In this document: positions 21,090 to 59,562 of the stretch, piece by piece
Numbering within the stretch: position 1 is the first letter of the stretch
Layout: each line of letters starts with the position of its first letter
Assembly: GCF_000374125.1 (NCBI RefSeq)
Contig: NZ_KB893649.1
Coordinates: 144,759 to 208,758, forward strand
Direction: 5' to 3'
DNA: 64,000 nt
From: Niabella aurantiaca DSM 17617
GTDB lineage: Bacteria > Bacteroidota > Bacteroidia > Chitinophagales > Chitinophagaceae
The notes under the pieces: generated by a model
Database searches by the model: none
The model's input: the letters and a program-made list of their open reading frames with translations, nothing else
Told to the model about the DNA's origin: nothing
Program-made: the position numbers and the translations under genes

Positions 21090-21145
21090 CGGGATTCCAG
21101 GAACCAGATCCTCAATTCTGGATTCTGGATTCTCGATTCCCGACT
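21090..21145. repeat. Heptamer-period array between purS and rsmI
   Basis: Eight 7-bp units in perfect register: CGGGATT, CCAGGAA, CCAGATC, CTCAATT, CTGGATT, CTGGATT, CTCGATT, CCCGACT. The left and right halves are roughly inverted copies, so the array can fold. Its last two bases overlap the purS stop codon. Confidence 0.8.
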
Positions 21146-21389
21146 ACAGTACCGTTACCTCAAAATACTCCATTACCGCATTGGCCAGCAGTTGTTTTGC
21201 TGCTTGCTCACCAATACCCTTCGCTTCCTCCGGGGAAGCAGCATCGACCTGCAGCGTGATGTTTTTTCCAACCCGCACATCCGTAACGGCTCCAAGACCC
21301 AGATTGGCCAATCCACCCAGAACGGCTTTTCCCTGCGGGTCCAATAATTCTTTTAACGGCATGATCACCACCTGTACTGTATAACTCAT
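21144..21389 (-). CDS. purS: Phosphoribosylformylglycinamidine synthase subunit PurS
   Basis: 81 residues, the normal PurS length. PurS is the small non-catalytic subunit of the PurSQL complex that makes FGAM in purine synthesis. The sequence VVIMPLKELLDPQGKAV, followed by LANLGLGAVTDVRVGKNI and a C-terminal VMEYFEVTVL, is diagnostic. purQ and purL are not adjacent, so the subunit genes are dispersed here. Confidence 0.93.
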   Translation of the reverse strand: MSYTVQVVIMPLKELLDPQGKAVLGGLANLGLGAVTDVRVGKNITLQVDAASPEEAKGIGEQAAKQLLANAVMEYFEVTVL

Positions 21390-21485
21390 ACGCTTTCTTG
21401 TAAATTTTATTAAATTGCTTTTGCCAGGCCGGGTTCCCTGCCGGTGCAGCTTACACCCGCCCGGATCGCGGCAATATAAAAATTG

Positions 21486-22226
21486 TCACGCCCGGTCCGG
21501 CTTAAAAATCAAAGATACAATAACATAAGCTACAAATACCACGGGCACCGCGATCCATTTAAAAAAGACAGCGGCCAATATCGCAATGAACACCAGTAAT
21601 AACTTGTCTTTATTGGCTTTCAGCGTATATTTTTTAAACTTCAGGCTGATGATGGGCAGGTTGCTCACCATCAGTCCGCTGATGATCAGGATCGCCGGAT
21701 AAACCAGGAGCGGGTGAAAAACAAGCTGGCCGACGGCGGGCGAACCGGTATATGCGATCACGGGTAAGGACGCTACGGTGAGCGCTGCAGCTGGTGTTGG
21801 GATGCCTTTAAAATAATAGTGTTGCTCTTTATCCAGATTAAACTTTGCCAGGCGCCATACGGCAGCGCAGGGAAAAAGAACTGCCGGCAGGTACCACCAG
21901 CCGGTAACCGCGGCATTGTTGGCCCATCCGATCTGCAGCAGGCGATACAGGATCATGCCGGGCGCTACGCCAAAGCTTACCGCATCTGCCAGTGAATCCA
22001 ATTGCGCACCCATCTGCGAGGTGGCTTTGAAAAGCCGGGCCACAAACCCATCCAGGAAATCGACAACAGCAGCGCACAGCAGCAAAAAGCTGCCCACCAG
22101 CATGCCCGTGGTGAGCGATAGCGGGGAGGCCCACAAAAAAGCACTTTCCGGCTCCAGAATAAATTTGATCGCCAGGCAGCCAAACACCAGGTTTAACAGG
22201 GTAAATAAATTGGGGATCTGTTTCAT
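21486..22226 (-). CDS. pssA: CDP-diacylglycerol-serine O-phosphatidyltransferase
   Basis: 246 residues with about seven membrane helices. It condenses CDP-diacylglycerol and L-serine to phosphatidylserine, the precursor of phosphatidylethanolamine. The CDP-alcohol phosphotransferase signature DG-x2-AR-x8-G-x3-D-x3-D is complete across LDGFVARLFK...GAQLDSLAD. The N-terminus MKQIPNLFTLLNLVFG is typical of Bacteroidota PssA. The start lies 5 bp after the stop of the conserved gene at 22232, so the two form an operon. Confidence 0.94.
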   Translation of the reverse strand: MKQIPNLFTLLNLVFGCLAIKFILEPESAFLWASPLSLTTGMLVGSFLLLCAAVVDFLDGFVARLFKATSQMGAQLDSLADAVSFGVAPGMILYRLLQIGWANNAAVTGWWYLPAVLFPCAAVWRLAKFNLDKEQHYYFKGIPTPAAALTVASLPVIAYTGSPAVGQLVFHPLLVYPAILIISGLMVSNLPIISLKFKKYTLKANKDKLLLVFIAILAAVFFKWIAVPVVFVAYVIVSLIFKPDRA

Positions 22227-22231
22227 AATCG

Positions 22232-22795
22232 TCAGGTTAACCGGGCGGCTAACTGGTCGTTTATCTTTTTATATAAATGATACGGCTTGTACACCCGCCA
22301 GTTATTTATTTCCATCAGCTCGATGAACTGGTTCAGTTTGGCCTGCTTAAAATCATACTGGGTTTGCGAAGGCATGTTCAGGCATACGATCCAGCCGTCT
22401 GCATCGCTCAGCTCCTCGTGCAGCTCTTCATAATAGTCCCGGTCGCCGCTGTGAAAATTCAGCACATTCTCCGCGATCAGAATAAATTTATAAATGCCTT
22501 CATTCATAAATACTTCCAGCACATCCCGTTTGAGGGTCATGATGTCATTCTCTACGGCATCATTCCACTCCCCGATGAGCTCGATGACGGCATACCCTTC
22601 CTCATAATCGGCCATCAATACCTTCAGGTAAAGCGTGCGGCTGCCAAAATAATCCCATTGCGGATGAATATAGTAGTTGTACACGGCATCCTTGTATTCA
22701 AACTGGGAGTGCTCGACCCCGTAAAAGGGGGAAAGTTCATCTTCTTCGCTCAGATAAATATGCTGCCAATTGTAATATGGTTCAATATCATGCAC
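22232..22795 (-). CDS. Conserved hypothetical protein upstream of pssA
   Basis: 187 residues, acidic and aromatic-rich, with no signal peptide or membrane helix. Recognisable segments are YYIHPQWDYFGSRTLYLKVL, GYAVIELIGEWNDAVENDI and EGIYKFILIAENVLNFHSGD. No named family. The 5-bp spacing to pssA suggests a shared transcript and perhaps a role tied to membrane lipid synthesis, but nothing in the sequence proves that. Confidence 0.75.
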   Translation of the reverse strand: MHDIEPYYNWQHIYLSEEDELSPFYGVEHSQFEYKDAVYNYYIHPQWDYFGSRTLYLKVLMADYEEGYAVIELIGEWNDAVENDIMTLKRDVLEVFMNEGIYKFILIAENVLNFHSGDRDYYEELHEELSDADGWIVCLNMPSQTQYDFKQAKLNQFIELMEINNWRVYKPYHLYKKINDQLAARLT

Positions 22796-22989
22796 GGTGC
22801 GAATTTACTGTTTTTTAAAAATTTGAATCTGCTGATTTATTATTTTAACTTTATAGGGGAACCGCCGGAGATGAAGGTGTTATCTGCGAACCGTTCCTTT
22901 TAAAATATTCAACCCTGTAAAGCAGACCGGGCGGGTTTTATCCGGTCCATAAAAATCATTTTTCCGGACCATTCGTTAAAACATGCGTT

Positions 22990-24660
22990 ATGAGAACAAG
23001 CCTCGTTTGCGCCCTGGTCAGTTGCCTTTTTTTATGCTGTAAACAAAAGAACCGGCCACCAACGGCGGCCCAGATCGGATCACTGGAGCTTAAAAGAGGA
23101 CCGCTTATTTCCTGCGGTCCGCCCGAACTGCAACTGGGTGCTGCGGTATTTGAGACCGGCTGTTCTACTGTAAAGGACGATTTTAATCTTGGTATTCAAT
23201 TACTGCACTCATTTGAATATGAAGAAGCGGAGAAGGTATTCGCCGGCATCATTGACAAAGAGCCCGGTTGCGCCATGGGTTACTGGGGTATTGCCATGTC
23301 GAACTTTCATCCGCTATGGACCGCCCCAACTCCCGAAGAACTGAAAAAAGGAGCCGCAGCCATCGGTCTGGCACGCTCGCTCCCTGCTTCCGGCAGGGAA
23401 AAAGAATACATCGCTGCTATCGGGGCCTATTACGATCATTGGGAAACCGCCGGCCACCGCACCCGTGCGCTGCGCTTTGAGCACGCTATGAAAAAGCTTG
23501 CCGGTCAGTACCCGCAGGATAAGGAAGCAAGGATCTTTTATGCCCTTGCCCTTGATGCGGCGGCGGATCCTGCCGACAAAACCTTTCGCCGGCAACTGCA
23601 GGCCGCGCAGCTCCTGCAGGCTCTCTATCCCGGCCAGCCGGAACACCCGGGTATTGTGCATTACCTCATCCATACCTATGATTACCCCGAGCTGGCACAA
23701 CGGGGGCTGGCCGCTGCACGGAAATATGCATCGATCGCACCTTCTTCCGCCCACGCCCTTCACATGCCCTCACATATCTTTATACGGCTGGGACTTTGGG
23801 ATGAAGCCATCCGCTCCAATCTCGCCTGTATTGCCGCTGCCCTGTGCTATGCTGAAGCAACCAATATGAAGGGCCACTGGGATGAAGAGCTGCACGGACT
23901 GGATTATCTTGTTTACGGATACCTGCAAAAAGGACAGAATGATTCCGCCCGGAGCAAACTCGAATACCTCAGGCATATTACCGAAGTATATCCGGTAAAC
24001 ACCAAAGCGGCTTATTCTTTTGCCGCCATACCCGCCCGCTATGTGCTGGAAAATAAACAATGGGAAGCGGCCGCCGCACTCAAGCCCGCGTTTGAAAATA
24101 TCAACTGGAACCGTTTTCCCTGGCAGGCCGCCATTACCCGTTTTACCCGCGCTTTGGGCCATGCACGTACAAGACGGCCAGGACCGGCCCGGGAAGAGCT
24201 GAAAGAACTGAACCGGCTGCAGGCCCTCCTTATTAAACAAAAAGACACTTACGCGGCCAACCAGGTAGCCATCCAGGCAAAAGCCGCCGAAGCATGGATC
24301 CTGTTTATAGAGGGGAAAAACGGGACAGCGCGGCCGTTGATGCAGCTTGCTGCAGATATGGAGGATCGTACCGGGAAACATCCGGTTACACCCGGAGAAG
24401 TTTTACCGGCCCGCGAGTTATTCGGCGATATGCTTCTGGAAATGAACCAGCCGGAAGCTGCACTGGCGGCATACGAAACTGCCTTAACCACCCATCCCGG
24501 GCGGTTCAATGCGCTCTACGGTGCCGGTCAGGCAGCCATCAGATCGGGAAAAACAGAAAAGGCAGCCGCCTACTTTCAACAGCTGTTGGCAATAACGGAT
24601 AGCGGCCGGTCGGCCCGGCCGGAAATAACCCGGGTCAAAAAATACCTGAAAACCTTATGA
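22990..24660 (+). CDS. TPR-repeat lipoprotein
   Basis: 556 residues. The N-terminus MRTSLVCALVSCLFLCC is a lipoprotein signal. TPR-like helical pairs begin near residue 70 (FEYEEAEKVFAGIIDKEPGC, AMGYWGIAMSNFHPLW) and continue through HALHMPSHIFIRLGLWDEAI to a canonical pair near the C-terminus (NQPEAALAAYETALTTHPGR). TPR proteins act as scaffolds; the partner is unknown. It is convergent with thrC, with 25 bp between the stops. Confidence 0.88.
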   Translation: MRTSLVCALVSCLFLCCKQKNRPPTAAQIGSLELKRGPLISCGPPELQLGAAVFETGCSTVKDDFNLGIQLLHSFEYEEAEKVFAGIIDKEPGCAMGYWGIAMSNFHPLWTAPTPEELKKGAAAIGLARSLPASGREKEYIAAIGAYYDHWETAGHRTRALRFEHAMKKLAGQYPQDKEARIFYALALDAAADPADKTFRRQLQAAQLLQALYPGQPEHPGIVHYLIHTYDYPELAQRGLAAARKYASIAPSSAHALHMPSHIFIRLGLWDEAIRSNLACIAAALCYAEATNMKGHWDEELHGLDYLVYGYLQKGQNDSARSKLEYLRHITEVYPVNTKAAYSFAAIPARYVLENKQWEAAAALKPAFENINWNRFPWQAAITRFTRALGHARTRRPGPAREELKELNRLQALLIKQKDTYAANQVAIQAKAAEAWILFIEGKNGTARPLMQLAADMEDRTGKHPVTPGEVLPARELFGDMLLEMNQPEAALAAYETALTTHPGRFNALYGAGQAAIRSGKTEKAAAYFQQLLAITDSGRSARPEITRVKKYLKTL

Positions 24661-24685
24661 ACGCGTACCTCACTGCCACAAACGC

Positions 24686-25984
24686 TTAGCCGTTCGTGAG
24701 GTATTCTTTGAACGCCGCATAGTCCGGCTGTAGCTCCACGGCCTGCTTCGGCTGCAGCATCAGCTCCTGCAATATTTCCGGAATTACAACATCGGCACCA
24801 GTAGCCTGTTTTACAGCATCCGGAAACTTTACGGGATGTGCCGTTTCGAGGATCAGTCCTTTTTCTCCCGGGTGTCCGTTCAGGTACTGTTCCAGCGCCC
24901 GGTACGCCACGGCCCCATGCGGGTCGAGCGTATAACCGGTTTCCTGAAAAACCGTTTGAATGGTTGCGATCGTATCGGCATCCGATATGCTGGCGGCCGA
25001 CAGGTTGTCTTTTAATTTCAGGAATTGCTGATCAAACAATTCCATAATGCGGACAAAATTGCTGGGATCGCCCACGTCCATGGCGTTGGACAATGTGGCT
25101 ACTGCTTTTTTGGGCTTCCAGTCTTCTGTTTGCAAAAATGCCGGCACCACATCATTGGCATTACAGGCCGCAATAAAATGGCCCAGTGGTAAGCCGCCCG
25201 CTTTTGCGAGGAGCCCTGCACAGATATTTCCGAAATTGCCGCTGGGTACCGTAACCACAGGCGCCAGGGTCTTGTCCGCCCATTGCTTGTAGGCGAAGAA
25301 ATAATAAAACTGCTGCGGCAGCCAGCGTGCTACGTTGATGGAATTGGCAGAGGTGAGGAACCGCTTCGCCCGGATGTCTTCATCGGTAAAAGCCTGTTTT
25401 ACCAGGCGCTGGCAGTCATCAAAGCTGCCGGCCACTTCCAGCGCGGTAATGTTCTTCCCCAGCGCTGTCAGCTGTTTTTCCTGCACCGGGCTTACCCTGT
25501 CTTTGGGGTACAGGATCACTACCTGAACACCCTCTACATCATAAAATCCACTTGCCACCGCGCCTCCCGTGTCTCCGGAAGTGGCCACCAGCACGGTCAC
25601 CTCTTTTTGCTCACCGCTCAAAAAATAACCCAGACAACGGCTCATAAAACGGGCGCCCACATCTTTGAACGCCAGGGTGGGACCATGAAATAATTCGAGC
25701 GATGCAATCCTGTCCGTAACCGGTTTTAACGGGAACGGGAAATTCACCGTTTGGGAAACGATCTCAAAAAGGGTTTCTTCGGGGATAGATGTTCCGACAT
25801 AGGGCCGGATAACGCGGAATGCAATTTCTTCCTCAGAAAGGGATCCGATATTTTTTAACAGGTCAGCCTCCGCGGCGGGCAGCACTTCGGGGAAGTATAA
25901 CCCCCTATCCGGTGCCTGTCCCTGTATGGCGGCCTCTTTAAACGTTACCTTCGGCGACTGATGATTTAAACTATAGTATTGCAT
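24686..25984 (-). CDS. thrC: Threonine synthase
   Basis: 432 residues. It converts O-phosphohomoserine to threonine with PLP. The PLP lysine is Lys107 in HGPTLAFKDVGARF, followed by VLVATSGDTGGAVASGF (phosphate-binding loop) and TVPSGNFGNICAGLLAKAGG. The gene is last in a thrA-thrB-thrC order on the minus strand. Its ATG lies only 5 bp after a heptamer array (25989-26030), so its translation initiation region is made of repeat DNA. Confidence 0.96.
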   Translation of the reverse strand: MQYYSLNHQSPKVTFKEAAIQGQAPDRGLYFPEVLPAAEADLLKNIGSLSEEEIAFRVIRPYVGTSIPEETLFEIVSQTVNFPFPLKPVTDRIASLELFHGPTLAFKDVGARFMSRCLGYFLSGEQKEVTVLVATSGDTGGAVASGFYDVEGVQVVILYPKDRVSPVQEKQLTALGKNITALEVAGSFDDCQRLVKQAFTDEDIRAKRFLTSANSINVARWLPQQFYYFFAYKQWADKTLAPVVTVPSGNFGNICAGLLAKAGGLPLGHFIAACNANDVVPAFLQTEDWKPKKAVATLSNAMDVGDPSNFVRIMELFDQQFLKLKDNLSAASISDADTIATIQTVFQETGYTLDPHGAVAYRALEQYLNGHPGEKGLILETAHPVKFPDAVKQATGADVVIPEILQELMLQPKQAVELQPDYAAFKEYLTNG

Positions 25985-25988
25985 GCGA

Positions 25989-26030
25989 TTTTAGACGTTA
26001 GATTTTAGACCTTAGATATTAGACCTTAGA
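25989..26030. repeat. Heptamer array next to the thrC start
   Basis: Six 7-bp units in exact register, consensus NNTTAGA: TTTTAGA, CGTTAGA, TTTTAGA, CCTTAGA, TATTAGA, CCTTAGA. It ends 4 bases from the thrC start codon. Confidence 0.85.
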
Positions 26031-26084
26031 CGTCCCGGCCCTGACAGATCCGGGTGTACTTTGAGGTTCGGTATCCGCTCCCCT

Positions 26085-26112
26085 ATTCACCATTGACTAT
26101 TCACCATTGACT
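26085..26112. repeat. Heptamer array overlapping the thrB 3' end
   Basis: Four 7-bp units: ATTCACC, ATTGACT, ATTCACC, ATTGACT (a 14-bp unit twice). The thrB stop (26097-26099) and its last codons lie inside the repeat, so the final residues VVNGE are repeat-encoded. Confidence 0.8.
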
Positions 26113-27023
26113 ACCTCCACCCCTTTATTGTTGATGGTTGTTACATAAACATAGTTCTCAATACCGATGCGGTCATAGATGCTGCTCATGATACCCGCCA
26201 CGTTCTTTGCCACCGCTTCCGTTTCACTCAGCATAAAAATAGACGGCCCGGATCCGGATATGCCTCCACCCAGGGCGCCGGCCTCCCGGCACCGGCTCTT
26301 TACTTCGTCAAACCCGGGAATCAGGATGCTTCTTACCGGCTCGATGATCACATCCTCCAGCGAGCGGCTGATCAGCGTTTTGTCGTTCCGCATAAAGCCA
26401 GCCACCAGGCCGGCTATATTTCCCCATTGTTTGATCGCATCCTTCAGCAACACTTTTTGTTTCAGGATCTGGCGGGCGTCGGCAGTGCGTACCTCTATCT
26501 GCGGGTGCACCACCGTAACAAAAAGATCGGGGGCCGCCAGCGGAACGATGTCGATCGGGTGGATCGACCGGATGAGGGTGACCCCTCCCAAAATACAGGG
26601 GGTAATATTGTCTGCATGTTTTACACCACTGGCCAGCTTTTCGCCGATCATCGCCAGCTGTACCAGCTCATCCGTGGTAAACCGGTTACCGAGCAACAGG
26701 TTGGCCCCCACGGCCGCACCTGCAGCGCTGGCCGCGCTGGATCCTAACCCGCTGCCGGGTTTGATCCGTTTTTGTATGGTTACCTCAAACCCGATATTGC
26801 CGCCGGCCTTTTCGATGGCGGCCAGCAATACCACCCCTGCTACATTCTGTTCCGGATCCGTTGGCAAACCAAAATGATCCCTGTTCCGGATGATGACGCG
26901 CGGCTCATCCAGCAAACGGAATTCCATGATATCATACGGATCGTTCAGGGCAAGGCCCAGGATATCAAATCCGCAGACCAGGTTGGCCACAGTGCCCGGG
27001 GATTTTATTTTTACTTGTTTCAT
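26097..27023 (-). CDS. thrB: Homoserine kinase
   Basis: 308 residues from ATG at 27021-27023; the open frame runs 37 codons further up but that part is unlike the family. A GHMP kinase that phosphorylates homoserine. Motifs: PGTVANLVCGFDILGLAL, the ATP-binding KPGSGLGSSAASAAGAAVG and the C-terminal GGGISGSGPSIFML. It sits 120 bp after thrA and upstream of thrC, in the threonine pathway order. Its extreme C-terminus overlaps a tandem repeat. Confidence 0.95.
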   Translation of the reverse strand: MKQVKIKSPGTVANLVCGFDILGLALNDPYDIMEFRLLDEPRVIIRNRDHFGLPTDPEQNVAGVVLLAAIEKAGGNIGFEVTIQKRIKPGSGLGSSAASAAGAAVGANLLLGNRFTTDELVQLAMIGEKLASGVKHADNITPCILGGVTLIRSIHPIDIVPLAAPDLFVTVVHPQIEVRTADARQILKQKVLLKDAIKQWGNIAGLVAGFMRNDKTLISRSLEDVIIEPVRSILIPGFDEVKSRCREAGALGGGISGSGPSIFMLSETEAVAKNVAGIMSSIYDRIGIENYVYVTTINNKGVEVVNGE

Positions 27024-27143
27024 CTGAGAGGTAGTAAACGATTGATTTGTGAGATAATTGTGATGCGCTATGCCGCAATAAGTATAAGCGAACGAGGACC
27101 AGGGCTGCCGGAAACGTCCGTTGCCTCCGATCATCTTTGCTTC

Positions 27144-29600: not shown

Positions 29601-29643
29601 GAACTTGATTTAGTAATAAAAGAAAAGGGAATAAACCCGGGGT

Positions 29644-29663
29644 AAAAAACGGCAGAATGCCCG
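29644..29663 (-). terminator. Putative thr attenuator terminator
   Basis: On the minus strand a short GC-rich hairpin (29650-29663, 5 bp with one bulged G, 3-nt loop) is followed directly by six T (29644-29649). It lies between the leader peptide stop (29690) and the thrA start (29600), the expected place for an attenuator. A second hairpin (29683-29689 with 29695-29701, 7 bp) overlaps the leader stop codon. Confidence 0.55.
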
Positions 29664-29689
29664 ATGGATGATATAGCAGCGTACAACCC

Positions 29690-29770
29690 TCAAGGGGTTG
29701 TGGTAATAGTGGTAGCAGTTTCGTTACCGAAAGCTAAAGAAGGTTGGATATTTTGAAAACAGTATTGCAT
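29690..29770 (-). CDS. thrL: thr operon leader peptide
   Basis: A 26-residue ORF from ATG at 29768-29770 ending GNETATTITTTP. Seven of its last nine residues before the final Pro are Thr or Ile, as in enterobacterial ThrL, whose run of Thr/Ile codons makes the ribosome stall when charged tRNA is scarce. It is followed by two hairpins and a T-run before thrA. The frame is also open upstream, but the promoter box at 29787-29794 leaves this ATG as the first on the transcript. The symbol is given by analogy of position and composition. Confidence 0.7.
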   Translation of the reverse strand: MQYCFQNIQPSLAFGNETATTITTTP

Positions 29771-29786
29771 TTTATTAGATACCTGC

Positions 29787-29820
29787 ACAAGATAAGGGAG
29801 AATATTTAAAATTATAACAA
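29787..29820 (-). promoter_or_regulatory. Candidate thrLABC promoter
   Basis: Minus strand TTG (29818-29820), 23 nt, then TATCTTGT (29787-29794), which differs from TAnnTTTG at two positions. It is 16 nt before the leader peptide ATG. Confidence 0.4.
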
Positions 29821-31011: not shown

Positions 31012-31030
31012 AAACAGCTTATACATCTGA

Positions 31031-34131: not shown

Positions 34132-34132
34132 T

Positions 34133-38955: not shown

Positions 38956-39056
38956 GTTTGAGGTTTCACGTTTGAGATCGGGTCCCGGCTTTGGCGCCCG
39001 ATGTTGCTGCTCTGAATCCGGAGCGAACCTGAAACATGGAACGTTAAACCCTGAAA
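38956..39056. repeat. Inverted pair of heptamer arrays
   Basis: Left arm 38956-38976: GTTTGAG, GTTTCAC, GTTTGAG. Right arm 39028-39056: CCTGAAA, CATGGAA, CGTTAAA, CCCTGAAA, which on the other strand reads as similar GTTTNAN units. The pair fills the gap between the convergent DUF488 and glycosidase genes and could form a long imperfect hairpin, so it may act as a terminator. Confidence 0.65.
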
Positions 39057-44762: not shown

Positions 44763-45175
44763 CGGAAAAACCGGAAACGTAACATGCAGAATGTTGAATT
44801 TAAATTTTAAAGGCACGCCTACATCGTAAAATATTGATAAACAAAACAATAAATGTGGAGACATGCAGATGTGGAAATGAAGATCCTGACATCAAACCAG
44901 GTCTGATCATTATCAAGAGCCAACAGTTCATGGTCAATAGTTCTCCGGTATGAAGCGAAATCCGACGTTGAACTTTGAACCCCGCCATGATCGGTGAGAA
45001 GTGAAACACGGAACTAACCTCAAACAGAAACATCAGACCAGAAACCTGTTCGTGGTCAGTGAGCATTGACACTGGCCAGAGGCCTATTTTACATCAAATG
45101 TCCTCCCACTCCGAGGCTCCGAAATCCACATTTTTCACATTCCCACACTCCCACATTTTCAAATTTTTAACTTCC

Positions 45176-46990
45176 CTAAACCATCTCCTGCATATCCACC
45201 AGCTTCCTGTAAATACCCCCTTCGATCTGCATCAGTTCCTTATGTGCGCCCCGTTCTGCAATTTCGCCTTTATTGAGCACGATGATCTCATCTGCGTGGC
45301 GTACGGTACTTAACCGGTGGGCAATTACCAGCGAAGTCCGGTTTTTCATCATATTATTGATGGCGTCCTGTACCAGGCGTTCGCTTTCCGTATCGAGGGA
45401 AGAAGTAGCTTCGTCAAGAATGAGGATGGGCGGGTTTTTGAGGACCGCCCGGGCAATGGTCAGCCGTTGTTTTTCGCCTCCGCTTAATTTAGCGCCCCTG
45501 TCGCCGATATTGGTATCAAACTGTTCAGGCTTATGTTCTATAAACCGCCAGGCATTTGCAACTTTGGCGGCGCTTTCAATTTCACTCAATGGCGCATCGG
45601 GGTCGGAAAGCGTAATATTATTGCCAATGGTATCGTTAAACAGGATGGGCTCCTGGCTTACGATACCAATTTGTTTTCTTATAGATTCGATGCTGTAGTC
45701 CCTGATATTGACGCCATCAAAGAGGATCTCGCCTGAGGTTACATCATGAAAACGGGGTACCAGGTCTGCCAGCGTGCTCTTTCCCGCACCGCTGCTGCCC
45801 ACCAGCGCCACGGTCTTTCCTTTGGGAATAAACAGGTTGATGTTTTTAAGGATGGGCGTTTCATTGTATGAAAACGACACATTTCTAAACTCGATGCCTT
45901 CGTTGAATACCTCCAGTTTCTTCGTACCGGTATCTTCTACTTTTTCCGGTGTGGTTAACAGCGCTTCAATACGCTCCACAGCAGCGGCACCTTCCCGCAC
46001 CCTGAAAAAGGATGAGGCCAGGGATTTGGCCGGGTTGATCATCATCGCAAATATGGCTATAAATGCGATCAGATCGCCGGGGCCGAGGGAGTTGCCGTTA
46101 AGAATCAGGTTGGCGCCAAAATAAATGATCACACAGAGTACCACTACACCTAAAAGCTCTGTAAGCGGCGATGCCAGGTCCCTGCGGGCCGCCATTTTCT
46201 TATTGATGCCCAGCAAGGTATTGTTGAGGGTAACAAAGCGGTTGTTCAGGATCTTTTCCGCGGTAAATGCCTTGATGATCCGGATCCCTGTAAGGGTTTC
46301 ATCCAGTATGGACAGGGTATCGCCCACCCGCAGCGATGCCGCGTTGCTTTGTTTTTTAAGGGTGCGGCTGATGCGGCCGATGATAAAGGCCGTTGCAGGC
46401 AACAGAACCAGCAAAAACACCGAAAGGCCGGGGCTGATGGCCACCATCCCAACAAGATAGCTGATCACCATCACCGGGTCTTTGATCAACCCTTCCATGG
46501 TATTTACAATGGAACTTTCTACCATGTTGGCATCATTGGTCATGCGGCTCATGATATCGCCTTTTTTCTGCTCGGAAAAATAGCCCACCGGCAGGTTCAG
46601 TACTTTGGCATAAAGATCATTTTTGAGATGGATGATGATGGAGCTCCTTACCGGTACCGAAATCAGCGAGGACACATACAACAACAGGTTTTTTAGAAAT
46701 ACTGAAATGACCACCAGCATGCAACAGAGCAGCACGGCATGCATTTGCTGCCCACTGTTAACCAATTTTGTCAATTCCTCACCGATATAATGCCCGCCCG
46801 GGATCTTGTTCAGTATATCTTGCCCGCCAATACCATCCACCTTAAAAATGAGCGACATTAACGGCGCCAGCATTCCCAAAGAAACCACTGATAATGAAGA
46901 TGCTATAATAGTAATAGAAACATACAGGACGATCTTCCCCTTGTAATAACCGATATACTTAAATAAGCGACTGAATTTTTTTAGGCCCAT
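45176..46990 (-). CDS. MsbA-like ABC exporter (fused membrane and ATPase domains)
   Basis: 604 residues. Six membrane helices (about 20-310) precede an ATPase domain with Walker A ALVGSSGAGKSTLADLVPRF, signature LSGGEKQRLTIARAVL, Walker B ILILDEATSSLD and the switch His in VIAHRLSTVRHAD. Half-transporters of this type act as homodimers and often flip lipid A or other lipids, or glycolipids, across the inner membrane. It lies just before a polysaccharide cluster on the same strand, which fits a lipid-linked glycan or lipid A substrate; the substrate is inferred. Confidence 0.9.
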   Translation of the reverse strand: MGLKKFSRLFKYIGYYKGKIVLYVSITIIASSLSVVSLGMLAPLMSLIFKVDGIGGQDILNKIPGGHYIGEELTKLVNSGQQMHAVLLCCMLVVISVFLKNLLLYVSSLISVPVRSSIIIHLKNDLYAKVLNLPVGYFSEQKKGDIMSRMTNDANMVESSIVNTMEGLIKDPVMVISYLVGMVAISPGLSVFLLVLLPATAFIIGRISRTLKKQSNAASLRVGDTLSILDETLTGIRIIKAFTAEKILNNRFVTLNNTLLGINKKMAARRDLASPLTELLGVVVLCVIIYFGANLILNGNSLGPGDLIAFIAIFAMMINPAKSLASSFFRVREGAAAVERIEALLTTPEKVEDTGTKKLEVFNEGIEFRNVSFSYNETPILKNINLFIPKGKTVALVGSSGAGKSTLADLVPRFHDVTSGEILFDGVNIRDYSIESIRKQIGIVSQEPILFNDTIGNNITLSDPDAPLSEIESAAKVANAWRFIEHKPEQFDTNIGDRGAKLSGGEKQRLTIARAVLKNPPILILDEATSSLDTESERLVQDAINNMMKNRTSLVIAHRLSTVRHADEIIVLNKGEIAERGAHKELMQIEGGIYRKLVDMQEMV

Positions 46991-50245: not shown

Positions 50246-50366
50246 GGGGACATTTAGCGATGAATGAATGTACAATTTCCAAAAACATAGTGACAACAAA
50301 TTTAGCAAAAGTATGTTTCACTTTGCTGATCCTGGTCAGCAATTTTGATAACCTTATCATTTCTGC

Positions 50367-51650: not shown

Positions 51651-51953
51651 TACCGTTCAGTAGTTTATATACTTTCCGTATATCGTTTTTCAATAAAATG
51701 TTATTTAGAGCTCGGGCAGCCCTATACTTTTCTATAAACGACGAAAGAGGCCGTTTCGCAACAAAAGAGTTGTATTTATTTGTTAAAAAAAATCAAAGAG
51801 TCATTAGCAGTCGGTGTCTTCTATTGTTGTTCATTAGGCATCCGGATGTCAACAGGGCCGTTTCACTAACAGGGTCATCTAACACAGCATTTGAAACGCC
51901 TTTAATTTGGATTAGTTATACAGAACATAAAAAAACCTAAAGTGCGTGTCCTT
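51651..51953. other. Gene-free, AT-rich gap between glycosyltransferase genes
   Basis: About 300 bp with no credible gene, hairpin or promoter seen. An open frame on the plus strand (51698-51940) has no family resemblance and is antisense to the cluster. Confidence 0.6.
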
Positions 51954-53114: not shown

Positions 53115-53162
53115 TCTTCTTTCCGGGAGCTAAGTCATACAGGGAATTAAAAAAAGATACGT

Positions 53163-53963
53163 TTATGCCTCCATATACCCGTTGGTCCGGTAGCTGTATT
53201 TGTACTGCACGGTTTCCCGGTATATTTTTTCATTGGTGCCCAGGTTGGCCCGGGAATTAAAAGTGTGAAAGATATGATATCCAACCGCAGCAAGTTTTAC
53301 TTTCTTCTTTTTGATGCCGAGGTTGATCAACCGCTCACCCAGCTCGGAATCCTCCCTGCCCCAGCCCTCAAATCCGCTGTAATAGCCGTTCACTTTCACA
53401 TAATCATCTTTCCAGAATGCCAGGTTACATCCTTTTATATTGTGTGATTTACGGGGATCCACAAAAAAGAAACCCGAGAAAAGAGGTACGCGCAATGCAT
53501 TAAAACGGTTGGCAAGTCCCGGCATAAAGGAATGCAGCCCTTCAATATTCTTGGTACGCAACAGGTCATGACTTCGCTGTTCGTTGATCAGCGTCCTGCT
53601 TCCCTGTACAAAATACCCCTTCCGGGCGGCCTTCATGTGATCTGCAATGAACTCGCGGTGCATGACAATATCCCCATCAATTTCAATGATATAGTCCGAC
53701 TCGATTTCTTTTATCGCTTTATTCAGGATCAGGCTTTTACGGAAACCGCGGTCTTCGTGATACACGTGCTTTACCGGTATCCCGTGGATCTTTTTAAAGT
53801 TTTCGATGCACCACGCTGTATGCGCGTCATCGCCATCCTCCGCAATAATGATCTCATCCGGCCTCCGGCTCTGGTACAGTACACTTTTTAATACCAGTTG
53901 CAGGGCCTCCGGCCATTTGTAGGTGGAAATCATCAATGCTACCGTAAAAGGAGTTTTTTTCAT
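53163..53963 (-). CDS. Glycosyltransferase family 2 (chondroitin-synthase-like)
   Basis: 266 residues. GT-A fold: VALMISTYKWPEALQLVLKS, RRPDEIIIAEDGDD, HEDRGFRKSLILNKAIKEIE, the metal-binding Asp pair in YIIEIDGDIVMHREFI, and the C-terminal GCNLAFWKDDYVKVNGY, FEGWGREDSELGERLI. This is the KfoC/chondroitin polymerase-like branch of GT2. Base composition is closer to the chromosome average than the three genes before it. Confidence 0.9.
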   Translation of the reverse strand: MKKTPFTVALMISTYKWPEALQLVLKSVLYQSRRPDEIIIAEDGDDAHTAWCIENFKKIHGIPVKHVYHEDRGFRKSLILNKAIKEIESDYIIEIDGDIVMHREFIADHMKAARKGYFVQGSRTLINEQRSHDLLRTKNIEGLHSFMPGLANRFNALRVPLFSGFFFVDPRKSHNIKGCNLAFWKDDYVKVNGYYSGFEGWGREDSELGERLINLGIKKKKVKLAAVGYHIFHTFNSRANLGTNEKIYRETVQYKYSYRTNGYMEA

Positions 53964-54307
53964 ATATATTCTGTCTTTCTGCTTTTTGGTTTAGACCGGC
54001 CATCCGGTACGATCATACCCTCCAATAACAACGTAAAAAACCGCTGCATTGCAACATTTTTGTCAGTTTGATTTATTCCGGATGCCAAATTTATCAATTC
54101 TTTTACAACTTTGCGGATCGTATCATCACCCAAAGACAAAGGGGGAGATCCATCTTGTTCAGCCTGCAACGCGCTCCTCTGTGCTCCTGTTTAGCTTGCA
54201 AAGATAGTTTTTTTACTGCATCAACGCGCAGAAATCAATCCGCCAGGCCCCGAAAGAAGCCACTGATTTATCAAACTATTATTAAATTTGCCCCTTATTT
54301 AGGAACT
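53964..54307. other. Divergent intergenic region, GT2 gene and cupin gene
   Basis: No convincing gene. A minus frame (53960-54169) overlaps the GT2 start by 4 bp but has only a TTG start. A TAAATTTG box at 54283-54290, 17 nt before the ATG at 54308, is a likely promoter for the cupin gene. Confidence 0.55.
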
Positions 54308-55174
54308 ATGCAATTGATAGCTTTAGATAAATTCGATCACCTTGGTCCGGATGATTTTAAAAAAAATTACTATCAAAAGAATAAACCTGTTGTCATCCGC
54401 GATCTTGCCCGTCAGTGGCCCGCCTTCTCCCGGTGGAACTGGGATTACTTCATCAATATCGTAGGCGACAGGGAAGTGGGCGTTTACAACAACATCAAGA
54501 GCGATTCCTACACCCCCATCAACACGGCAGACGCCTATATGAAATTTGGAGCATACCTGGAGATGGTAAAAAAAGGCCCGGTGGAACTGCGGATCTTTCT
54601 TTTTAACATTTTTCAGCATGCCCCCCAGATCGTTTCCGATTTTACATGGCCGGATGATTACATGAAAGGATTTGTAAAAAAATTCCCCATGCTGTTCGTC
54701 GGCGGCCAGGGGTCGGTTACTCACATGCACTTCGACATCGACCTCAGCCATATCCTGCACACACAATTCATGGGAAGAAAAAGGGTGCTGCTCTTCCCTT
54801 TTGAGGAGCAGCACAAACTATACCGGAAACCCTGGGAGGTTTTGAGCCTGGCCAATTTTGCCCGGTATCACGAACAATTCGACTATGAAAAGTTTCCCGC
54901 CACAAAGGCCGCCCGGGGGTATGAGGTGATCCTGGAGCATGGAGACACCCTGTTCATGCCGGCCGGGTACTGGCATCATATGGAATACATTGATGCAGGA
55001 TTTGCCATGAGTCTCAGAGCATTACAAAGCGGGATCACCGGCAAGCTGAAAGGCGCCTGGAACCTGTTTGGCATGCGCAATATTGATACCCTGATGAAGA
55101 GGACCGCACCCAAATGGTGGTATGACCGGAAGGTGAAGCAATTGTATGCAGATGCCGAGCAAACAATGAGGTGA
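54308..55174 (+). CDS. JmjC-like cupin protein
   Basis: 288 residues from ATG at 54308-54310; the frame is open far upstream but the family match begins here. The fold is cupin_8/JmjC: NKPVVIRDLARQWPAFSRWN, the iron motif H141-F-D143 in GSVTHMHFDIDLSHIL, and the distal His in MPAGYWHHMEYID. Such proteins are 2-oxoglutarate/Fe(II) oxygenases that hydroxylate proteins or small molecules. The substrate is unknown. It may be linked to the polysaccharide cluster only by position. Confidence 0.87.
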   Translation: MQLIALDKFDHLGPDDFKKNYYQKNKPVVIRDLARQWPAFSRWNWDYFINIVGDREVGVYNNIKSDSYTPINTADAYMKFGAYLEMVKKGPVELRIFLFNIFQHAPQIVSDFTWPDDYMKGFVKKFPMLFVGGQGSVTHMHFDIDLSHILHTQFMGRKRVLLFPFEEQHKLYRKPWEVLSLANFARYHEQFDYEKFPATKAARGYEVILEHGDTLFMPAGYWHHMEYIDAGFAMSLRALQSGITGKLKGAWNLFGMRNIDTLMKRTAPKWWYDRKVKQLYADAEQTMR

Positions 55175-55246
55175 TGTGCTAATCTGAAAATGCCTTGCTA
55201 CCCGGAAAACCGGCAGCGCTCATTTTCAAATTCATCAATTACCGGA

Positions 55247-55984
55247 TTATTCCTCCGCGTTCCAAATATTCCAGCTGAGTTCAGCCTGTCCTACCAGCAT
55301 CTCATACCCGTTTTTTATAAGCGCCCCCCGGTCCTTCCCTTCTTTTAAAAAAGCCGTTAACGGGGGGTTATATACCAGGTCATACAGGTAATGCCGCGAA
55401 GTGATCAATGTATAGGGCAGGTTGGGCTTGCCTTCGATGTTGGGATAGCTTCCCAATGGTGTGGTATTGATAATTAAAGAATAAGCTTCCATGATCCCGG
55501 CATCCAGGTCTGCATATCCCCATTCATTTTCACCGGGAGTCCTGGAGACATACCGGTAAGAGACGCCCAGCTTCTCCAGGGTATAGCGTACCGCCCGCGC
55601 CGCGCCGCCGGTGCCCAGGATCAATGCCTGCTGATGATGTGGCTGCAGTTGCTGAAGCAAGGTGGTTTCAAAGGCCGCAGCATCCGTATTATACCCCTTC
55701 AACCGGCCGTTGGAGATCCGGATACAATTGCAGGCGCCGATGGACTCCGCCTCCCCGTCCAGCTCATGAAGAAAAGCCATAACCTCCTGTTTGTAAGGGA
55801 TGGTCACATTGAACCCGGCCAGTTCCGGATATTGCTGCAGCAGCTCCGGCAGCTGCCGGATGGAAGGGATTTCAAAAGCCTCATACCGGCAATCTCCGAT
55901 CCCTTCTTTTTCAAATTTTTCAGTAAAATAGCGTTTTGAAAAAGACTGACTTAGCGGGAACCCGATCAAACCATACAGACGCAT
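55247..55984 (-). CDS. aroE: Shikimate dehydrogenase
   Basis: 245 residues, slightly shorter than E. coli AroE. It reduces 3-dehydroshikimate with NADPH. Motifs: YGLIGFPLSQSFSKRYFTEK, GFNVTIPYKQEVMAFL (catalytic Lys), NTDAAAFETTL (Asp) and ALILGTGGAARAVRYTLEKL (NADP-binding). Its start overlaps the stop of the upstream comA-like gene by one base (55984), so the two are translationally linked. Confidence 0.94.
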   Translation of the reverse strand: MRLYGLIGFPLSQSFSKRYFTEKFEKEGIGDCRYEAFEIPSIRQLPELLQQYPELAGFNVTIPYKQEVMAFLHELDGEAESIGACNCIRISNGRLKGYNTDAAAFETTLLQQLQPHHQQALILGTGGAARAVRYTLEKLGVSYRYVSRTPGENEWGYADLDAGIMEAYSLIINTTPLGSYPNIEGKPNLPYTLITSRHYLYDLVYNPPLTAFLKEGKDRGALIKNGYEMLVGQAELSWNIWNAEE

Positions 55985-56757
55985 CAGAATGCGGTTTTAT
56001 TATCCAGGTACAAACCAAATGAATCGCCCCGCAACCCGATGCGCATGGCTTCCAGCGCAATCAGTTCATTGGGAGGGATATTGCCGAGGTTCACATTGCA
56101 CCCGATCAGCTCCAGAAAATAAAGCTGCTGGGCCTTTTGGGGTGCCTCCCATATGATCTTCTCAGAAGGGATCTGCGTCAGGATCTCCTGCACCAGCCCC
56201 TCGCGCACCTCGCCGGTTCCGCGGTAAATACCCACGTTTCCTGCCTCCCGGGCCTCAGCGATCACATAAGAAGAGCCCGCTTCCAGCTCGGCTTTCATCA
56301 ACTCGATCCACTTATACGGCGGAATGATATGTGTGGCGTCTTTACTTCCCACCTCGCTTAAAACGGTTCCGTGCTGCGTCAGCTTTTCAATATAGCCACA
56401 CTTCTCGGCATGGGGAATGCTGATAGAGCCGTCACTTACCTCCATATAATCGATCCCAAAATGCTTGCAGATCGCAATATAATCGTCCACCTGATTCCTT
56501 ACCAGGTAGGCTTCAAAAAGGGTGCCGCCAAAATAAACGGGAACATCATAGGAGCGATAGACTTCGATCTTCTTTTCCAGGTTGGGAGTTACGACCGCAG
56601 TACCAAATCCCAATTTCAATACATCTACATGAGGATGAGACACACTCATAAAACTCTTTGCCTCATCAATACTCAACCCCTTATCCATTACCATGGTAAT
56701 GCCGTTTGTACGTGGACGAACGTACCGTTCCGGCATTTGCGTCAAATTAAACTTCAT
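55984..56757 (-). CDS. Phosphosulfolactate synthase (ComA family)
   Basis: 257 residues. ComA adds sulfite to phosphoenolpyruvate to make phosphosulfolactate. Segments match the family: PRTNGITMVMDKGLS, VDVLKLGFGTAVVTPNLEKK, PVYFGGTLFEAYLVRNQVDD, YMEVSDGSISIPHAEK, VLSEVGSKDA and VIAEAREAGNVGIYRGTGEV. In archaea the pathway leads to coenzyme M; in Bacteroidota a route through sulfopyruvate to cysteate and sulfonolipids is more likely. It shares a junction base with aroE and lies 2.9 kb from a CFAT-like acyltransferase. Confidence 0.9.
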   Translation of the reverse strand: MKFNLTQMPERYVRPRTNGITMVMDKGLSIDEAKSFMSVSHPHVDVLKLGFGTAVVTPNLEKKIEVYRSYDVPVYFGGTLFEAYLVRNQVDDYIAICKHFGIDYMEVSDGSISIPHAEKCGYIEKLTQHGTVLSEVGSKDATHIIPPYKWIELMKAELEAGSSYVIAEAREAGNVGIYRGTGEVREGLVQEILTQIPSEKIIWEAPQKAQQLYFLELIGCNVNLGNIPPNELIALEAMRIGLRGDSFGLYLDNKTAF

Positions 56758-56916
56758 TCGGTATCAGTTATTAATCGTCGCAAAAGTAACTATTTTGCTT
56801 AAGTTTATGCCACCCCCCTCCCGTTACTTGCAGAAAAAGCATTGAGAATGAATAACCAATTGATAAAACCAACTTAAATTATCAGACGATTTTCCGTTTA
56901 TAGAAGGGCATTTACT

Positions 56917-56924
56917 TATTTTTG
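56917..56924 (+). promoter_or_regulatory. TATTTTTG box before the PBP1A gene
   Basis: A perfect TAnnTTTG box 37 nt before the ATG at 56962; no clear TTG at -33. Confidence 0.4.
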
Positions 56925-56961
56925 GTGCCAGATTTTATTATAAACACTTTATCCTTTATAT

Positions 56962-59406
56962 ATGAAGAAATCAGTTCGGATTTTCTGGCGGATTTTTTTC
57001 CTTTTATTTGGCCTGGGCATTTTAACCGTTCTCCTGGCCAACTGGGGCGTATTTGGAAGAATGCCTTCGCTGGCGGAACTGGAGAACCCTGCCATCACCC
57101 AGGCTTCAGAGGTGCTGGCGGCAGATGGAACACTGATGGGCAAATATTACCTCCCCAATGGCAACCGTTCAATCATTAAATACAGGGATATTTCTCCCAA
57201 CGTAATCAATGCCCTGATCGCTACAGAAGATAAACGTTTTTATGATCATGCCGGCATCGACCTGAAGGGAACGCTGCGCGCTATCTTCCTGCTGGGAAAA
57301 GAAGGCGGGGGCAGCACCATTACCCAGCAGCTGGCCCTGGCCCTGTTTGCCCAGCGTGCCAGCAACAAAGCGGTAAGGGTGATCCAGAAATTAAAGGAAT
57401 GGATCATTTCAGTAAAGCTGGAACGCAATTTTACCAAAGAAGAGATCATTGCCCTTTATCTGAACGCGGTTCCTTTCAGTGATAACGTATACGGCATTCG
57501 TAACGCCTCCAGGACCTGGTTTAAGAAAGAGCCGGATCGTCTGAGTGTGGAAGAAGCGGCATTGCTGGTGGGTATGATCAACGGCCCGGGCATCTATAAC
57601 CCGAGAAGGAACCCCAAGCTGGCCATCGACCGCAGGAACACGGTGATCTCCCGTATGGTGGAGAACGGGAATCTGTCTGCAGCCGAAGGCGAACGATTAA
57701 TGGCCACCCCGATGACGCTGAACTATAAAAAGATGGACGAAAATACGGGGTACGCGCCCTACTTCCGGGACGTGCTGCGCGATGAGTTAAAGAGCATCCT
57801 CAAAGACCCGGGTCTGAAAAAGCCGGACGGCTCTTCTTACAGTCTCTATGAAGACGGGCTGAAGATCTATACCACCATCAACCCCCAGATGCAGCAGTAT
57901 GCGGAAGAGGCGGTCTATATGCAGGTACCCAACCTGCAGCGCGCACTGGTACGCCAGTCCTTCATAAAGAACGGATCTGTCTGGAAAGGCCATGAAAATG
58001 TGCTCCTCCGTGCAATGAAGGAAAGTGACCGCTGGAGAAGTATGGCCGATGACGGATTCTCCGATAAAGAGATCAAAGCCAGTTTTTACAAAAAAGTGCC
58101 CATGCACATTTTTGCCTGGAACGCCCATAAAGGGCGCGATACGGTAATGACCCCCTACGATTCCATTAAATACCACCGGACCATGGTGCAATCTGCCTTT
58201 ATGGTCATGGACCCTGTAACCGGTGAGGTAAAAGCCTGGGTGGGTGGCATCGATTTTAAGACCTATAAATACGATCACGTAAACCTCCGTACAAAGCGGC
58301 AGGTAGGGTCCACCATCAAACCCCTGCTGTATGCCCAGGCCATCGAAGAGCGGGGCATGACGCCCGAGTCCATGGTGCAGGACGTGCAGCAGAACTTTGG
58401 CAACGGGCAGCTGGTACCGGCAACCGGCAGAACCTGTACCGGCAGGACCATGACCATGGCCTCGGCGCTGGCCTGGTCCCGCAACTGTGCCACCGCTTAT
58501 ATTATGAAGCAGGTAGGCGCGGCCCAGTTTGCCAACTTCCTGCAGCGCATCAATATTCCCACGAAGGTAAAACCCTTCCCCTCCATTGCCCTGGGTGCCT
58601 GTGAACTTTCGCTTTTTGAAATGCTTTGGGGCTACTCTATTTTCGGAGGACGGGGCTTTTCTACCAAACCTTATTTTATCAGCCGAATTGAAGACCGCAA
58701 TGGCAATGTGATCAAACGCTTTGACTATAGTGTGAACCGGAAGGAAGCCATCAGCGAAGCAACGGCCTATACCATGAGCCGTATGATGCAGGGCATTGTT
58801 GACAAGGGAACCGCTGCAGGCCTGCGTGCCCGCCTGGGCGCCGCCGAAATGGCCGGCAAAACCGGTACCACCAATGACAACAGTGATGCCTGGTTCATGG
58901 GCTTTACCCCCCAGCTGCTGGGTGGCGTATGGGTAGGGTGCGACGACCGCTTTATCCGCAACGAGGGCCGCGGAGGCTTCGGCGGCCACGCGGCGCGGCC
59001 GATATGGGAAGCCTTCTTTAAAAAGGTATATGCCGATAAATCATTGGGCATTAACAGGGATGAAAAGTTCCCCGAACCGGCCACTATGGATAACGAGATG
59101 CTAAGCGCTGACCCTTCCCAATATGTGACTTCGGAGAACCCGGAACCAACGGCCGAAGGCGAAGATGCAGGGTTGGGTACCGAGCAGGATTACATGCAAA
59201 ATACCAATGAATACATCGGACCGGAATCCAAGCCGGTCACCGATGAGAGCAAAGGCCCCGCTAAGGATACCACCAAAAAAGAACCTCCCAAAGCGGTTCA
59301 GGGAAAACCCATCGGGTCTGCCGACCAGCCAAAAAAGAAAAAAGGATTCCTGGGAGGCCTCTTCAAGAAAAAAGATAAAAATAAAAAACAGGACCAGGAG
59401 AAATAG
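56962..59406 (+). CDS. Penicillin-binding protein 1A (GT51 transglycosylase plus transpeptidase)
   Basis: 814 residues. One membrane helix (about 9-28), then a GT51 domain with catalytic Glu89 in ATEDKRFYDHAGIDLKG and GGSTITQQLALALF. The transpeptidase domain carries S450-T-I-K453 (VGSTIKPLLYAQAIE), S506-R-N508 (AWSRNCATAYI) and K633-T-G (AGKTGTTNDNSDAWF). It polymerises and crosslinks peptidoglycan in the periplasm. The last 100 residues are a charged, low-complexity tail rich in Lys, Pro and Glu, common in Bacteroidota PBP1A. It is a single gene. Confidence 0.96.
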   Translation: MKKSVRIFWRIFFLLFGLGILTVLLANWGVFGRMPSLAELENPAITQASEVLAADGTLMGKYYLPNGNRSIIKYRDISPNVINALIATEDKRFYDHAGIDLKGTLRAIFLLGKEGGGSTITQQLALALFAQRASNKAVRVIQKLKEWIISVKLERNFTKEEIIALYLNAVPFSDNVYGIRNASRTWFKKEPDRLSVEEAALLVGMINGPGIYNPRRNPKLAIDRRNTVISRMVENGNLSAAEGERLMATPMTLNYKKMDENTGYAPYFRDVLRDELKSILKDPGLKKPDGSSYSLYEDGLKIYTTINPQMQQYAEEAVYMQVPNLQRALVRQSFIKNGSVWKGHENVLLRAMKESDRWRSMADDGFSDKEIKASFYKKVPMHIFAWNAHKGRDTVMTPYDSIKYHRTMVQSAFMVMDPVTGEVKAWVGGIDFKTYKYDHVNLRTKRQVGSTIKPLLYAQAIEERGMTPESMVQDVQQNFGNGQLVPATGRTCTGRTMTMASALAWSRNCATAYIMKQVGAAQFANFLQRINIPTKVKPFPSIALGACELSLFEMLWGYSIFGGRGFSTKPYFISRIEDRNGNVIKRFDYSVNRKEAISEATAYTMSRMMQGIVDKGTAAGLRARLGAAEMAGKTGTTNDNSDAWFMGFTPQLLGGVWVGCDDRFIRNEGRGGFGGHAARPIWEAFFKKVYADKSLGINRDEKFPEPATMDNEMLSADPSQYVTSENPEPTAEGEDAGLGTEQDYMQNTNEYIGPESKPVTDESKGPAKDTTKKEPPKAVQGKPIGSADQPKKKKGFLGGLFKKKDKNKKQDQEK

Positions 59407-59506
59407 CAGTCAGTGATCAGCCGTGTTATGCCGAAAAGTGTCGGTGTTTCTTTAAAATTTAAGGTCCCGGGTTAAATCCATTTAATACGCAGTGATCATC
59501 TGGTAA

Positions 59507-59562
59507 CTGATAGCAGAAGGCTGATGGCTGGCCGCTGACAACTGACAGCTAACAGCCGGTAG
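59507..59562. repeat. Heptamer array, consensus CTGACAG
   Basis: Eight 7-bp units in register: CTGATAG, CAGAAGG, CTGATGG, CTGGCCG, CTGACAA, CTGACAG, CTAACAG, CCGGTAG. It lies between the PBP1A and acyltransferase genes, 22 bp before a TATATTTG promoter box. Confidence 0.8.

What the first reader, a model, noticed from the sequence alone, without database searches (positions are those of the whole stretch)
21090..59562. Intergenic arrays with unrelated unit sequences but the same 7-bp period
The arrays are: 21090-21145 (NNNGATT), 25989-26030 (NNTTAGA), 26085-26112 (ATTSACY), 38956-38976 with 39028-39056 (GTTTNAN, inverted) and 59507-59562 (CTGACAG). They occupy four intergenic regions. The unit differs at each locus while the period is always 7. 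All are intergenic or touch only stop or start regions. Heptamer STRR repeats are known from filamentous cyanobacteria, but I know of no description in this group. A common mechanism that builds period-7 DNA from different seeds would be new.
Basis: partly seen in the sequence, partly recalled or inferred. Interest (0 to 1): 0.72.

Follow-up and report, generated by a model that had tools for sequence, protein, structure and literature searches.

The report
Seven-base repeat arrays at gene ends
Between many genes of this bacterium and some of its relatives lie short DNA stretches that repeat every 7 (sometimes 8) bases; the wording changes from place to place but the rhythm does not, which extends a little-studied kind of repeat already known from a few other bacteria.

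Summary
The window comes from a Chitinophagaceae genome near Niabella. In 114 kb of its sampled intergenic DNA, period 7 gives 34 arrays (2.1 expected from shuffled intergenic DNA), period 6 gives 2 (3.4), period 8 gives 10 (2.0). Units differ between sites and, at one site, between close relatives.

The trait is patchy: 25-30 arrays per 100 kb in two relatives, none in samples of four others, one of them in the same genus.

Found here: in relatives, arrays abut stop codons, those beside a stop are purine-rich on the coding strand, and many come as inverted pairs; columns fixed within an array diverge less between species. Pairing and stop adjacency are weak in the own genome.

Units are not all independent seeds. 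RAYT/REP mobility was tested and not supported.

Best reading: a new variant of heptameric repeats, made by a replication process with a preferred 7-8 base step, copied within genomes, tolerated or weakly selected at gene ends. The mechanism is inferred, not shown.

The parts
21090..21145 (-). GAATCNN heptad array between a small gene (PurS by recall of its sequence, no call) whose stop codon adjoins the array and the start of a tetrapyrrole-methylase family gene; its distal part is a rough reverse complement of the proximal part
   Evidence: fold z -1.96; same site and unit family in Niabella L059 13309-13340
25989..26031 (-). RTCTNNN (TTAGANN) heptad array, about 6 units, ending just before the start of threonine synthase
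   Evidence: in L059 the TCT core is kept while other columns differ
26083..26113 (-). ATTSACY (TRGTSAA) heptad array carrying the C-terminal codons and stop of a GHMP kinase (homoserine kinase by its place beside threonine synthase, inferred)
   Evidence: same unit elsewhere in the own genome
38956..38976 (+). three GTTTSAN heptads just after a stop codon (weak alone)
   Evidence: below array threshold; fold z -2.02 with its partner
39028..39056 (-). inverted, degenerate partner of 38956-38976, abutting the stop of the GH123-family gene
   Evidence: L059 has a CTGANNN array at this place
59404..59424 (+). short possible left arm starting at the stop codon of a penicillin-binding-protein gene; complementary in part to 59500-59556
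   Evidence: fold z -2.75 for 59404-59550; read by eye
59500..59562 (+). CTGACAG/GCTGATN heptad array upstream of an aminotransferase gene
45136..45173 (-). period-8 array (AAATGTGN/CACATTNN) next to the ORF at 45176-46990
   Evidence: fold z only -1.15

Best explanation
The arrays belong to a genome-wide set of short, imperfect heptameric (less often octameric) tandem repeats at gene boundaries. Most likely generator (inferred): slipped or re-primed DNA replication with a preferred step of 7-8 nt, a property of the replication machinery and not of the sequence, so that any seed gives the same period. Arrays survive where they do not break genes, above all directly after stop codons. Made arrays are then copied to other intergenic sites of the genome, often in inverted orientation (template switching or gene conversion, inferred), which gives unit families and inverted pairs in array-rich relatives. 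Shown: period, place (in relatives), within-genome families, inverted pairs in relatives, patchiness. Suggested: weak constraint on core columns. Inferred: slippage, copying route, any function.
For: Period 7 (and 8) but not 6 in intergenic DNA, whatever the unit (period 9 is up only in small numbers: G009 7 vs 0.7, G055 3 vs 1.0, G018 3 vs 0.3). Arrays whose unit drifts while the phase stays (L185 1-102, L014 5218-5326). Transition-rich differences between neighbouring units, as for ordinary point mutation. Number of octad units differs at one site among three Longitalea/Niastella species, by eye. Different units at one site in two Niabella-like species. Arrays within 5 nt of a stop codon: G055 53 of 153 (random placement .04), named loci 23 of 57 (.10), G009 13 of 33 (.05), other relatives 5 of 13 (.11), own 4 of 20 (.09; not significant, p 0.10). 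Presence differs within one genus (own vs G022).
Against: Gap lengths inside orthologous arrays show no peak at 7 (6 nt 15, 7 nt 9, 8 nt 2), which simple slippage predicts, though those alignments are rough. Slippage alone explains neither inverted pairs nor within-genome families. Columns invariant within an array diverge less between two other species (558/2308 vs 644/1884), which suggests selection; few independent sites. No gene tested clearly tracks the trait.
Confidence: 0.45

Rival explanations
1. Sequence-independent structural element: arms are selected for being able to pair (cruciform in DNA or hairpin in RNA) in any heptad register, so the period and the complementarity are kept while the sequence turns over.
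For: Inverted partner within 250 bp at 16/21 or better: named loci 38 of 88 arrays (2.3 with permuted units, 10 with the complement-only control), G055 60 of 185 (6.0; 7). By region, inverted partners in 42/190 co-directional, 16/52 convergent, 7/39 divergent; direct 9, 4, 1; complement-only control 10, 4, 1. G009: near-perfect arms of about 32 nt around unrelated spacers. Chryseobacterium: predicted hairpin kept while the 5' arm changes. Arms conserved and spacer not alignable at one Longitalea/Niastella site.
Against: In the window's own genome 0 of 45 array regions have such a partner by the strict test and 3 of 35 arrays by the laxer one. Array regions fold no better than other intergenic regions in own (co-directional z -0.66 vs -1.15), and not clearly so in G055 or the named loci; only G009 stands out. 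Direct partners are nearly as common as inverted ones in G055 (53 of 185). No G-U over A-C bias on the transcribed strand in co-directional array regions (G055 25:29, named 44:36, own 4:1), so no sign of RNA-level selection.
Confidence: 0.2
2. Platform for an oligomeric nucleic-acid-binding protein with a 7-nt footprint per subunit (cold-shock-type proteins are one suggestion in PMC4679880).
For: Core columns fixed and other columns free within arrays (mean z 1.83 over 257 arrays against 0.66-1.23 in simulated slippage) and between species. Purine-rich coding strand in arrays within 10 nt of a stop (137 above, 26 below 0.5 of 169).
Against: Many unrelated cores and two periods are hard to fit to one sequence-specific protein; no protein was identified; the purine bias is partly tied to stop triplets in the unit (units without one: 35 vs 19, p 0.04).
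Confidence: 0.17
3. Miniature mobile elements (REP/BIME or MITE type) moved by a RAYT/IS200-like Y1 transposase.
For: Dispersed families, inverted pairs, rarer in divergent regions. Y1_Tnp counts are 3 in own, 7 in G055, 0 in G022 and G018; presence agrees with arrays in 9 of 12 sampled genomes.
Against: That agreement is not significant (Fisher p 0.22): G008 and G052 have arrays without Y1_Tnp, G058 Y1_Tnp without arrays. None of 5 RAYT-like loci examined (of 27 Y1_Tnp matches) has a period-7 array beside the gene; they lie among non-periodic palindromes, and one has two weak period-8 segments. Spacers between identical arms are unrelated in G009.
Confidence: 0.1

Closest known systems
GGGAATC / GGGGA(C/T)T heptamer arrays of Xanthomonas and Nostoc (Rehm et al. 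2015, PMC4692102; passages, the xanthomonad results section and the discussion read)
   Same: Intergenic, imperfect heptamers with free columns (GGGANTN), mostly 4 units; 70 and 75 inverted pairs in the two Xanthomonas genomes; nearer the upstream gene; [quoted passage not shown] fewer between divergent genes; mostly the same genes but variable length and sequence in related species
   Different: G-rich units read as G-quadruplexes, one unit type per genome studied. Here many unrelated units, few of them G-rich, a unit change at one site, a period-8 class, another phylum
TAACTGA repeats of Beggiatoaceae, cyanobacteria and five Bacteroidetes (MacGregor 2015, PMC4679880; abstract, passages, section 12)
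   Same: Intergenic heptamer repeats near start or stop codons, patchy, in part with other heptamers
   Different: One exact heptamer followed; in Flexibacter litoralis mostly upstream of starts
Long simple sequence repeats with heptamers over-represented (Mrazek 2007; not held; known only as cited in PMC4679880 and PMC4692102)
   Same: Heptamer excess across genomes; slippage proposed
   Different: Location, pairing and orthologous change are not in the citations that I saw
Prokaryote satellites (PMC6749651, passages only) and Bacillus tandem repeats of constant size, 52 or 20-21 nt, and variable sequence (PMC8161180, abstract only)
   Same: Heptamer-derived families dispersed in single species, with transposition suggested; size constant while sequence varies
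   Different: Longer units, or one heptamer per species (GATAGRA in Chloroflexus)
REP/BIME elements with RAYTs (PMC3733652 passages, PMC6006769 passages and section 25)
   Same: Intergenic, palindromic, can supply stop codons
   Different: Fixed palindromes; no heptad arrays at the RAYT-like genes tested

Membership tests
Heptameric simple sequence repeats | Tandem 7-nt units beyond chance, mostly intergenic | tested here: met
Heptameric simple sequence repeats | Copy number changes by whole units (slippage) | tested here: inconclusive
   Unit number differs at one octad site by eye, but gap lengths show no peak at 7
Rehm-type G-rich heptamer arrays | Inverted pairs close together | tested here: inconclusive
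   Met in named relatives, G055 and G009, weak or absent in the own genome
Rehm-type G-rich heptamer arrays | G-tracts able to form quadruplexes | tested here: not met
   Read from the unit tables, in which hardly any listed unit holds GGG; no quadruplex program was run
Rehm-type G-rich heptamer arrays | Near gene ends; few between divergent genes | tested here: met
   Stop-codon test (met in relatives, not significant in own); array regions divergent G055 7/43, named 6/117, own 4/73 vs co-directional 45/170, 60/380, 23/234
REP/BIME with RAYT | Element flanks the cognate Y1 transposase gene | tested here: not met
   0 of 5 RAYT-like loci with period-7 arrays; own-genome Y1_Tnp loci were not read
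Structured RNA family | Match to an Rfam model | tested here: not met
   No match at gathering score in the window

The most novel reading that the evidence does not exclude
The period itself is the heritable trait: some Bacteroidota have a replication or repair property that writes 7-8 nt arrays of any sequence at gene ends, often as inverted arms, and what selection keeps is the rhythm and the pairing, not the letters. The G-rich heptamers of Xanthomonas and Nostoc would then be one case of this, and quadruplex formation would not be the general reason for heptamers.
Probability: 0.2. Interest if true: 0.8.

Novelty: new variant of a known kind. Interest (0 to 1): 0.47.

Why it matters
Why heptamers are over-represented in bacterial intergenic DNA is left open in the papers read here. 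A lineage with many unrelated units, a site where the unit changes between relatives, and close relatives without arrays lets the step size be separated from the sequence and lets the responsible factor be mapped. It also weakens the view that heptamers exist to form G-quadruplexes.

Tried and rejected
G<->C 'toggling' as a signature: not clearly enriched (G055 .107 vs .102 expected, own .065 vs .070, named .092 vs .074). A universal TSA core or phylum-wide unit code: TTSACYA x3 occurs in 18 of 296 Bacteroidota genomes, but the reversed control occurs in about as many (19 by my count of the table). Units shared across genomes: 70 exact pairs against 13-22 permuted was inflated, because the named locus L073 is the G055 genome; without it 37 against 10-27, so sharing between genomes is only modest. 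mRNA hairpins as the general function: no strand bias and no clear extra folding outside G009. RAYT/REP mobility: see rivals. Reverse transcriptase (PF00078) as driver: no agreement in 12 genomes; DinB-type polymerase (PF00817) is in all 12, so it cannot discriminate. An inner motif GTGTAAC after left arms: not supported by k-mer counts. A first column-constraint test (570/2898 vs 807/2570) was biased, because changes in the species used to label columns also count as divergence; I replaced it with the three-species test. The first control pattern (14 matches, reversed control 15) says nothing.
Full report
Where the window lies. The window is contig C25 (144759-208758) of a 5.93-Mb genome in 25 contigs. 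Its threonine synthase is 82% and 78% identical to those of two Niabella MAGs (L059, L060), so the organism is a member of Chitinophagaceae near Niabella. Genes around the arrays, by Pfam, are a tetrapyrrole methylase, a CDP-alcohol phosphatidyltransferase, threonine synthase, a GHMP kinase (homoserine kinase by its place, inferred), GH123, a penicillin-binding protein and an aminotransferase. Rfam finds nothing at gathering score.

Is it real. The 38956/39028 pair is weak alone (absent); the rest are clear. In the window alone other periods also give single hits, so I sampled the own genome: 40 stretches of 20 kb plus the window. With shuffles made from intergenic DNA only, period 7 gave 34 arrays against 2.1, period 6 gave 2 against 3.4, period 8 gave 10 against 2.0, period 9 gave 1 against 2.3. 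Period 14 (23 vs 1.8) is mostly the harmonic. Genes were called as simple ORFs, so gene starts are rough.

Relatives. Intergenic period-7 arrays per 100 kb: G009 30, G055 25, G004 6, G008 4, G021 4, G052 3, own 2.4, G027 2, and none in the samples of G022 (400 kb, same genus), G018 (200 kb), G006 and G058 (100 kb each). Of the 80 named loci around threonine synthase, 77 were grouped (three dropped): Niabella, Chryseobacterium/Cloacibacterium and the mixed Chitinophagaceae/unclassified group have the excess; Hymenobacter has 1. A period-8 class occurs too, with units such as AATGTGCG, GTCTTACN and TAATTAGC; in the mixed group it is more than half as common as period 7 (23 vs 38).

Units. Units differ between sites but are not all independent. 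In G055 single units recur at many sites, some of them in higher-order tandem repeats. Between genomes the sharing is modest: without L073, which is the G055 genome under its accession, 37 exact pairs against 10-27 with permuted units (the uncorrected 70 was inflated). Phylum-wide one unit is no commoner than its reversed control, so families belong to lineages. Some arrays drift from one unit to another without losing phase.

Place. In relatives arrays abut gene ends. Within 5 nt of a stop codon lie 53 of 153 arrays in G055 (.35, random placement .04), 23 of 57 in named loci (.40 vs .10), 13 of 33 in G009 (.39 vs .05), 5 of 13 in the other sampled relatives (.38 vs .11) and 4 of 20 in own (.20 vs .09, p 0.10). 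Own arrays do lie near some gene boundary (within 10 nt .59 vs .25). Array regions are rarer between divergent genes. Arrays within 10 nt of a stop are purine-rich on the coding strand (mean .609; 137 above, 26 below one half, of 169), those further along are not (.474, n 338); part of this goes with stop triplets in the unit, and in own it is slight (8 vs 5). Stop regions without arrays have .50-.53.

Inverted pairs. In relatives an array often has its reverse complement nearby: 38 of 88 (named) and 60 of 185 (G055) against 2.3 and 6.0 for permuted units and 10 and 7 for the complement-only control; direct partners 8 and 53. Leaving out L073 changes named to 33 of 81. By region the partner is inverted in 42/190 co-directional, 16/52 convergent and 7/39 divergent cases, direct in 9, 4 and 1. 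The 5' arm is the purine-rich one in 41 of 50 period-7 pairs (6 opposite, 3 even) and in 8 of 8 period-8 pairs, none from own. G009 shows it best: arms of about 32 nt around unrelated spacers. In the own genome this is weak: 0 of 45 regions by the strict test, 3 of 35 arrays by the laxer one, and own array regions fold no better than others. Of five window regions three fold with z near or below -2 (-1.96, -2.02, -2.75) and two do not (-0.80, -1.15).

Change over time. Between the GHMP kinase and threonine synthase, 77 of 80 named loci could be read: some have short spacers without arrays, others have longer ones with arrays of different unit or period, and several Hymenobacter have long palindromes (by eye; L109 has a heptad array as well). 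Window and L059 share three arrays of the same unit family and carry different units at a fourth site next to the same stop codon, where the window's own pair is weak. At one Longitalea/Niastella site the arms stay and the spacer between them does not align. In Chryseobacterium a predicted hairpin is kept while the 5' arm changes. Columns invariant in one species' array diverge less between two other species: 558/2308 against 644/1884 over 125 triples from 21 arrays; per array lower in 20 of 26, higher in 5 (sign test p 0.004). These arrays come from few sites, 106 of the 125 triples from Chryseobacterium, and none from the Niabella trio.

Mechanism. A preferred 7-8 nt step in replication explains a constant period with free sequence, drifting units and unit-number changes. 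It does not explain families and inverted pairs, for which copying between sites must be added. The gap-length count does not support the simple form. Selection on RNA hairpins is not supported. RAYT mobility is not supported, though presence of Y1_Tnp agrees with arrays in 9 of 12 genomes (Fisher p 0.22). The core-column result leaves room for a bound protein or for selection on pairing.

Known work. Xanthomonas and Nostoc G-rich heptamers (PMC4692102) share nearly all of the layout, including inverted pairs and strand preference; TAACTGA repeats, in part with other heptamers, were reported from five Bacteroidetes (PMC4679880). I found no paper describing many-unit heptad arrays in Chitinophagaceae in searches, which cover open-licence papers only. 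I therefore call it a new variant of a known kind.

Noticed in passing
window 10300-10409 and 10425-10498: 11-bp arrays (GGATACAGAAA) followed by a 10-bp array; with up to 3 mismatches two 11-bp units give 24 overlapping matches at five places of the own genome, all on the + strand of their contigs; one (C1:983.7 kb) lies about 3.6 kb from a reverse-transcriptase match.
   Followed up: partly
window 45136-45173 and 8077-8096: Period-8 segments of the AATTTGAN/AATGTGNN kind, the octad counterpart of the heptads.
   Followed up: partly
window 26097-26113: The heptad array encodes the last residues and the stop codon of the GHMP kinase.
   Followed up: no
window 22990-24660: This ORF (557 aa) has no nucleotide match at the syntenic place of L059, which has about 340 bp there instead, with heptad arrays near both ends (L059 11302-11332, 11565-11602).
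   Followed up: no
L188, L259, L260 (G055): A dispersed palindromic element (GGCGCGAGTGTTCC...GCCGATTGTATCGGC) lies beside RAYT-like genes and also among heptad arrays in composite intergenic repeats.
   Followed up: partly
L103, L109, L111, L115, L121, L074, L081: These Hymenobacter loci carry long palindromes in the gap before threonine synthase (by eye).
   Followed up: no
L001 1-47 (own contig C1): The own contig C1 begins inside a GAGATTT array, so arrays may break assemblies and be undercounted.
   Followed up: no
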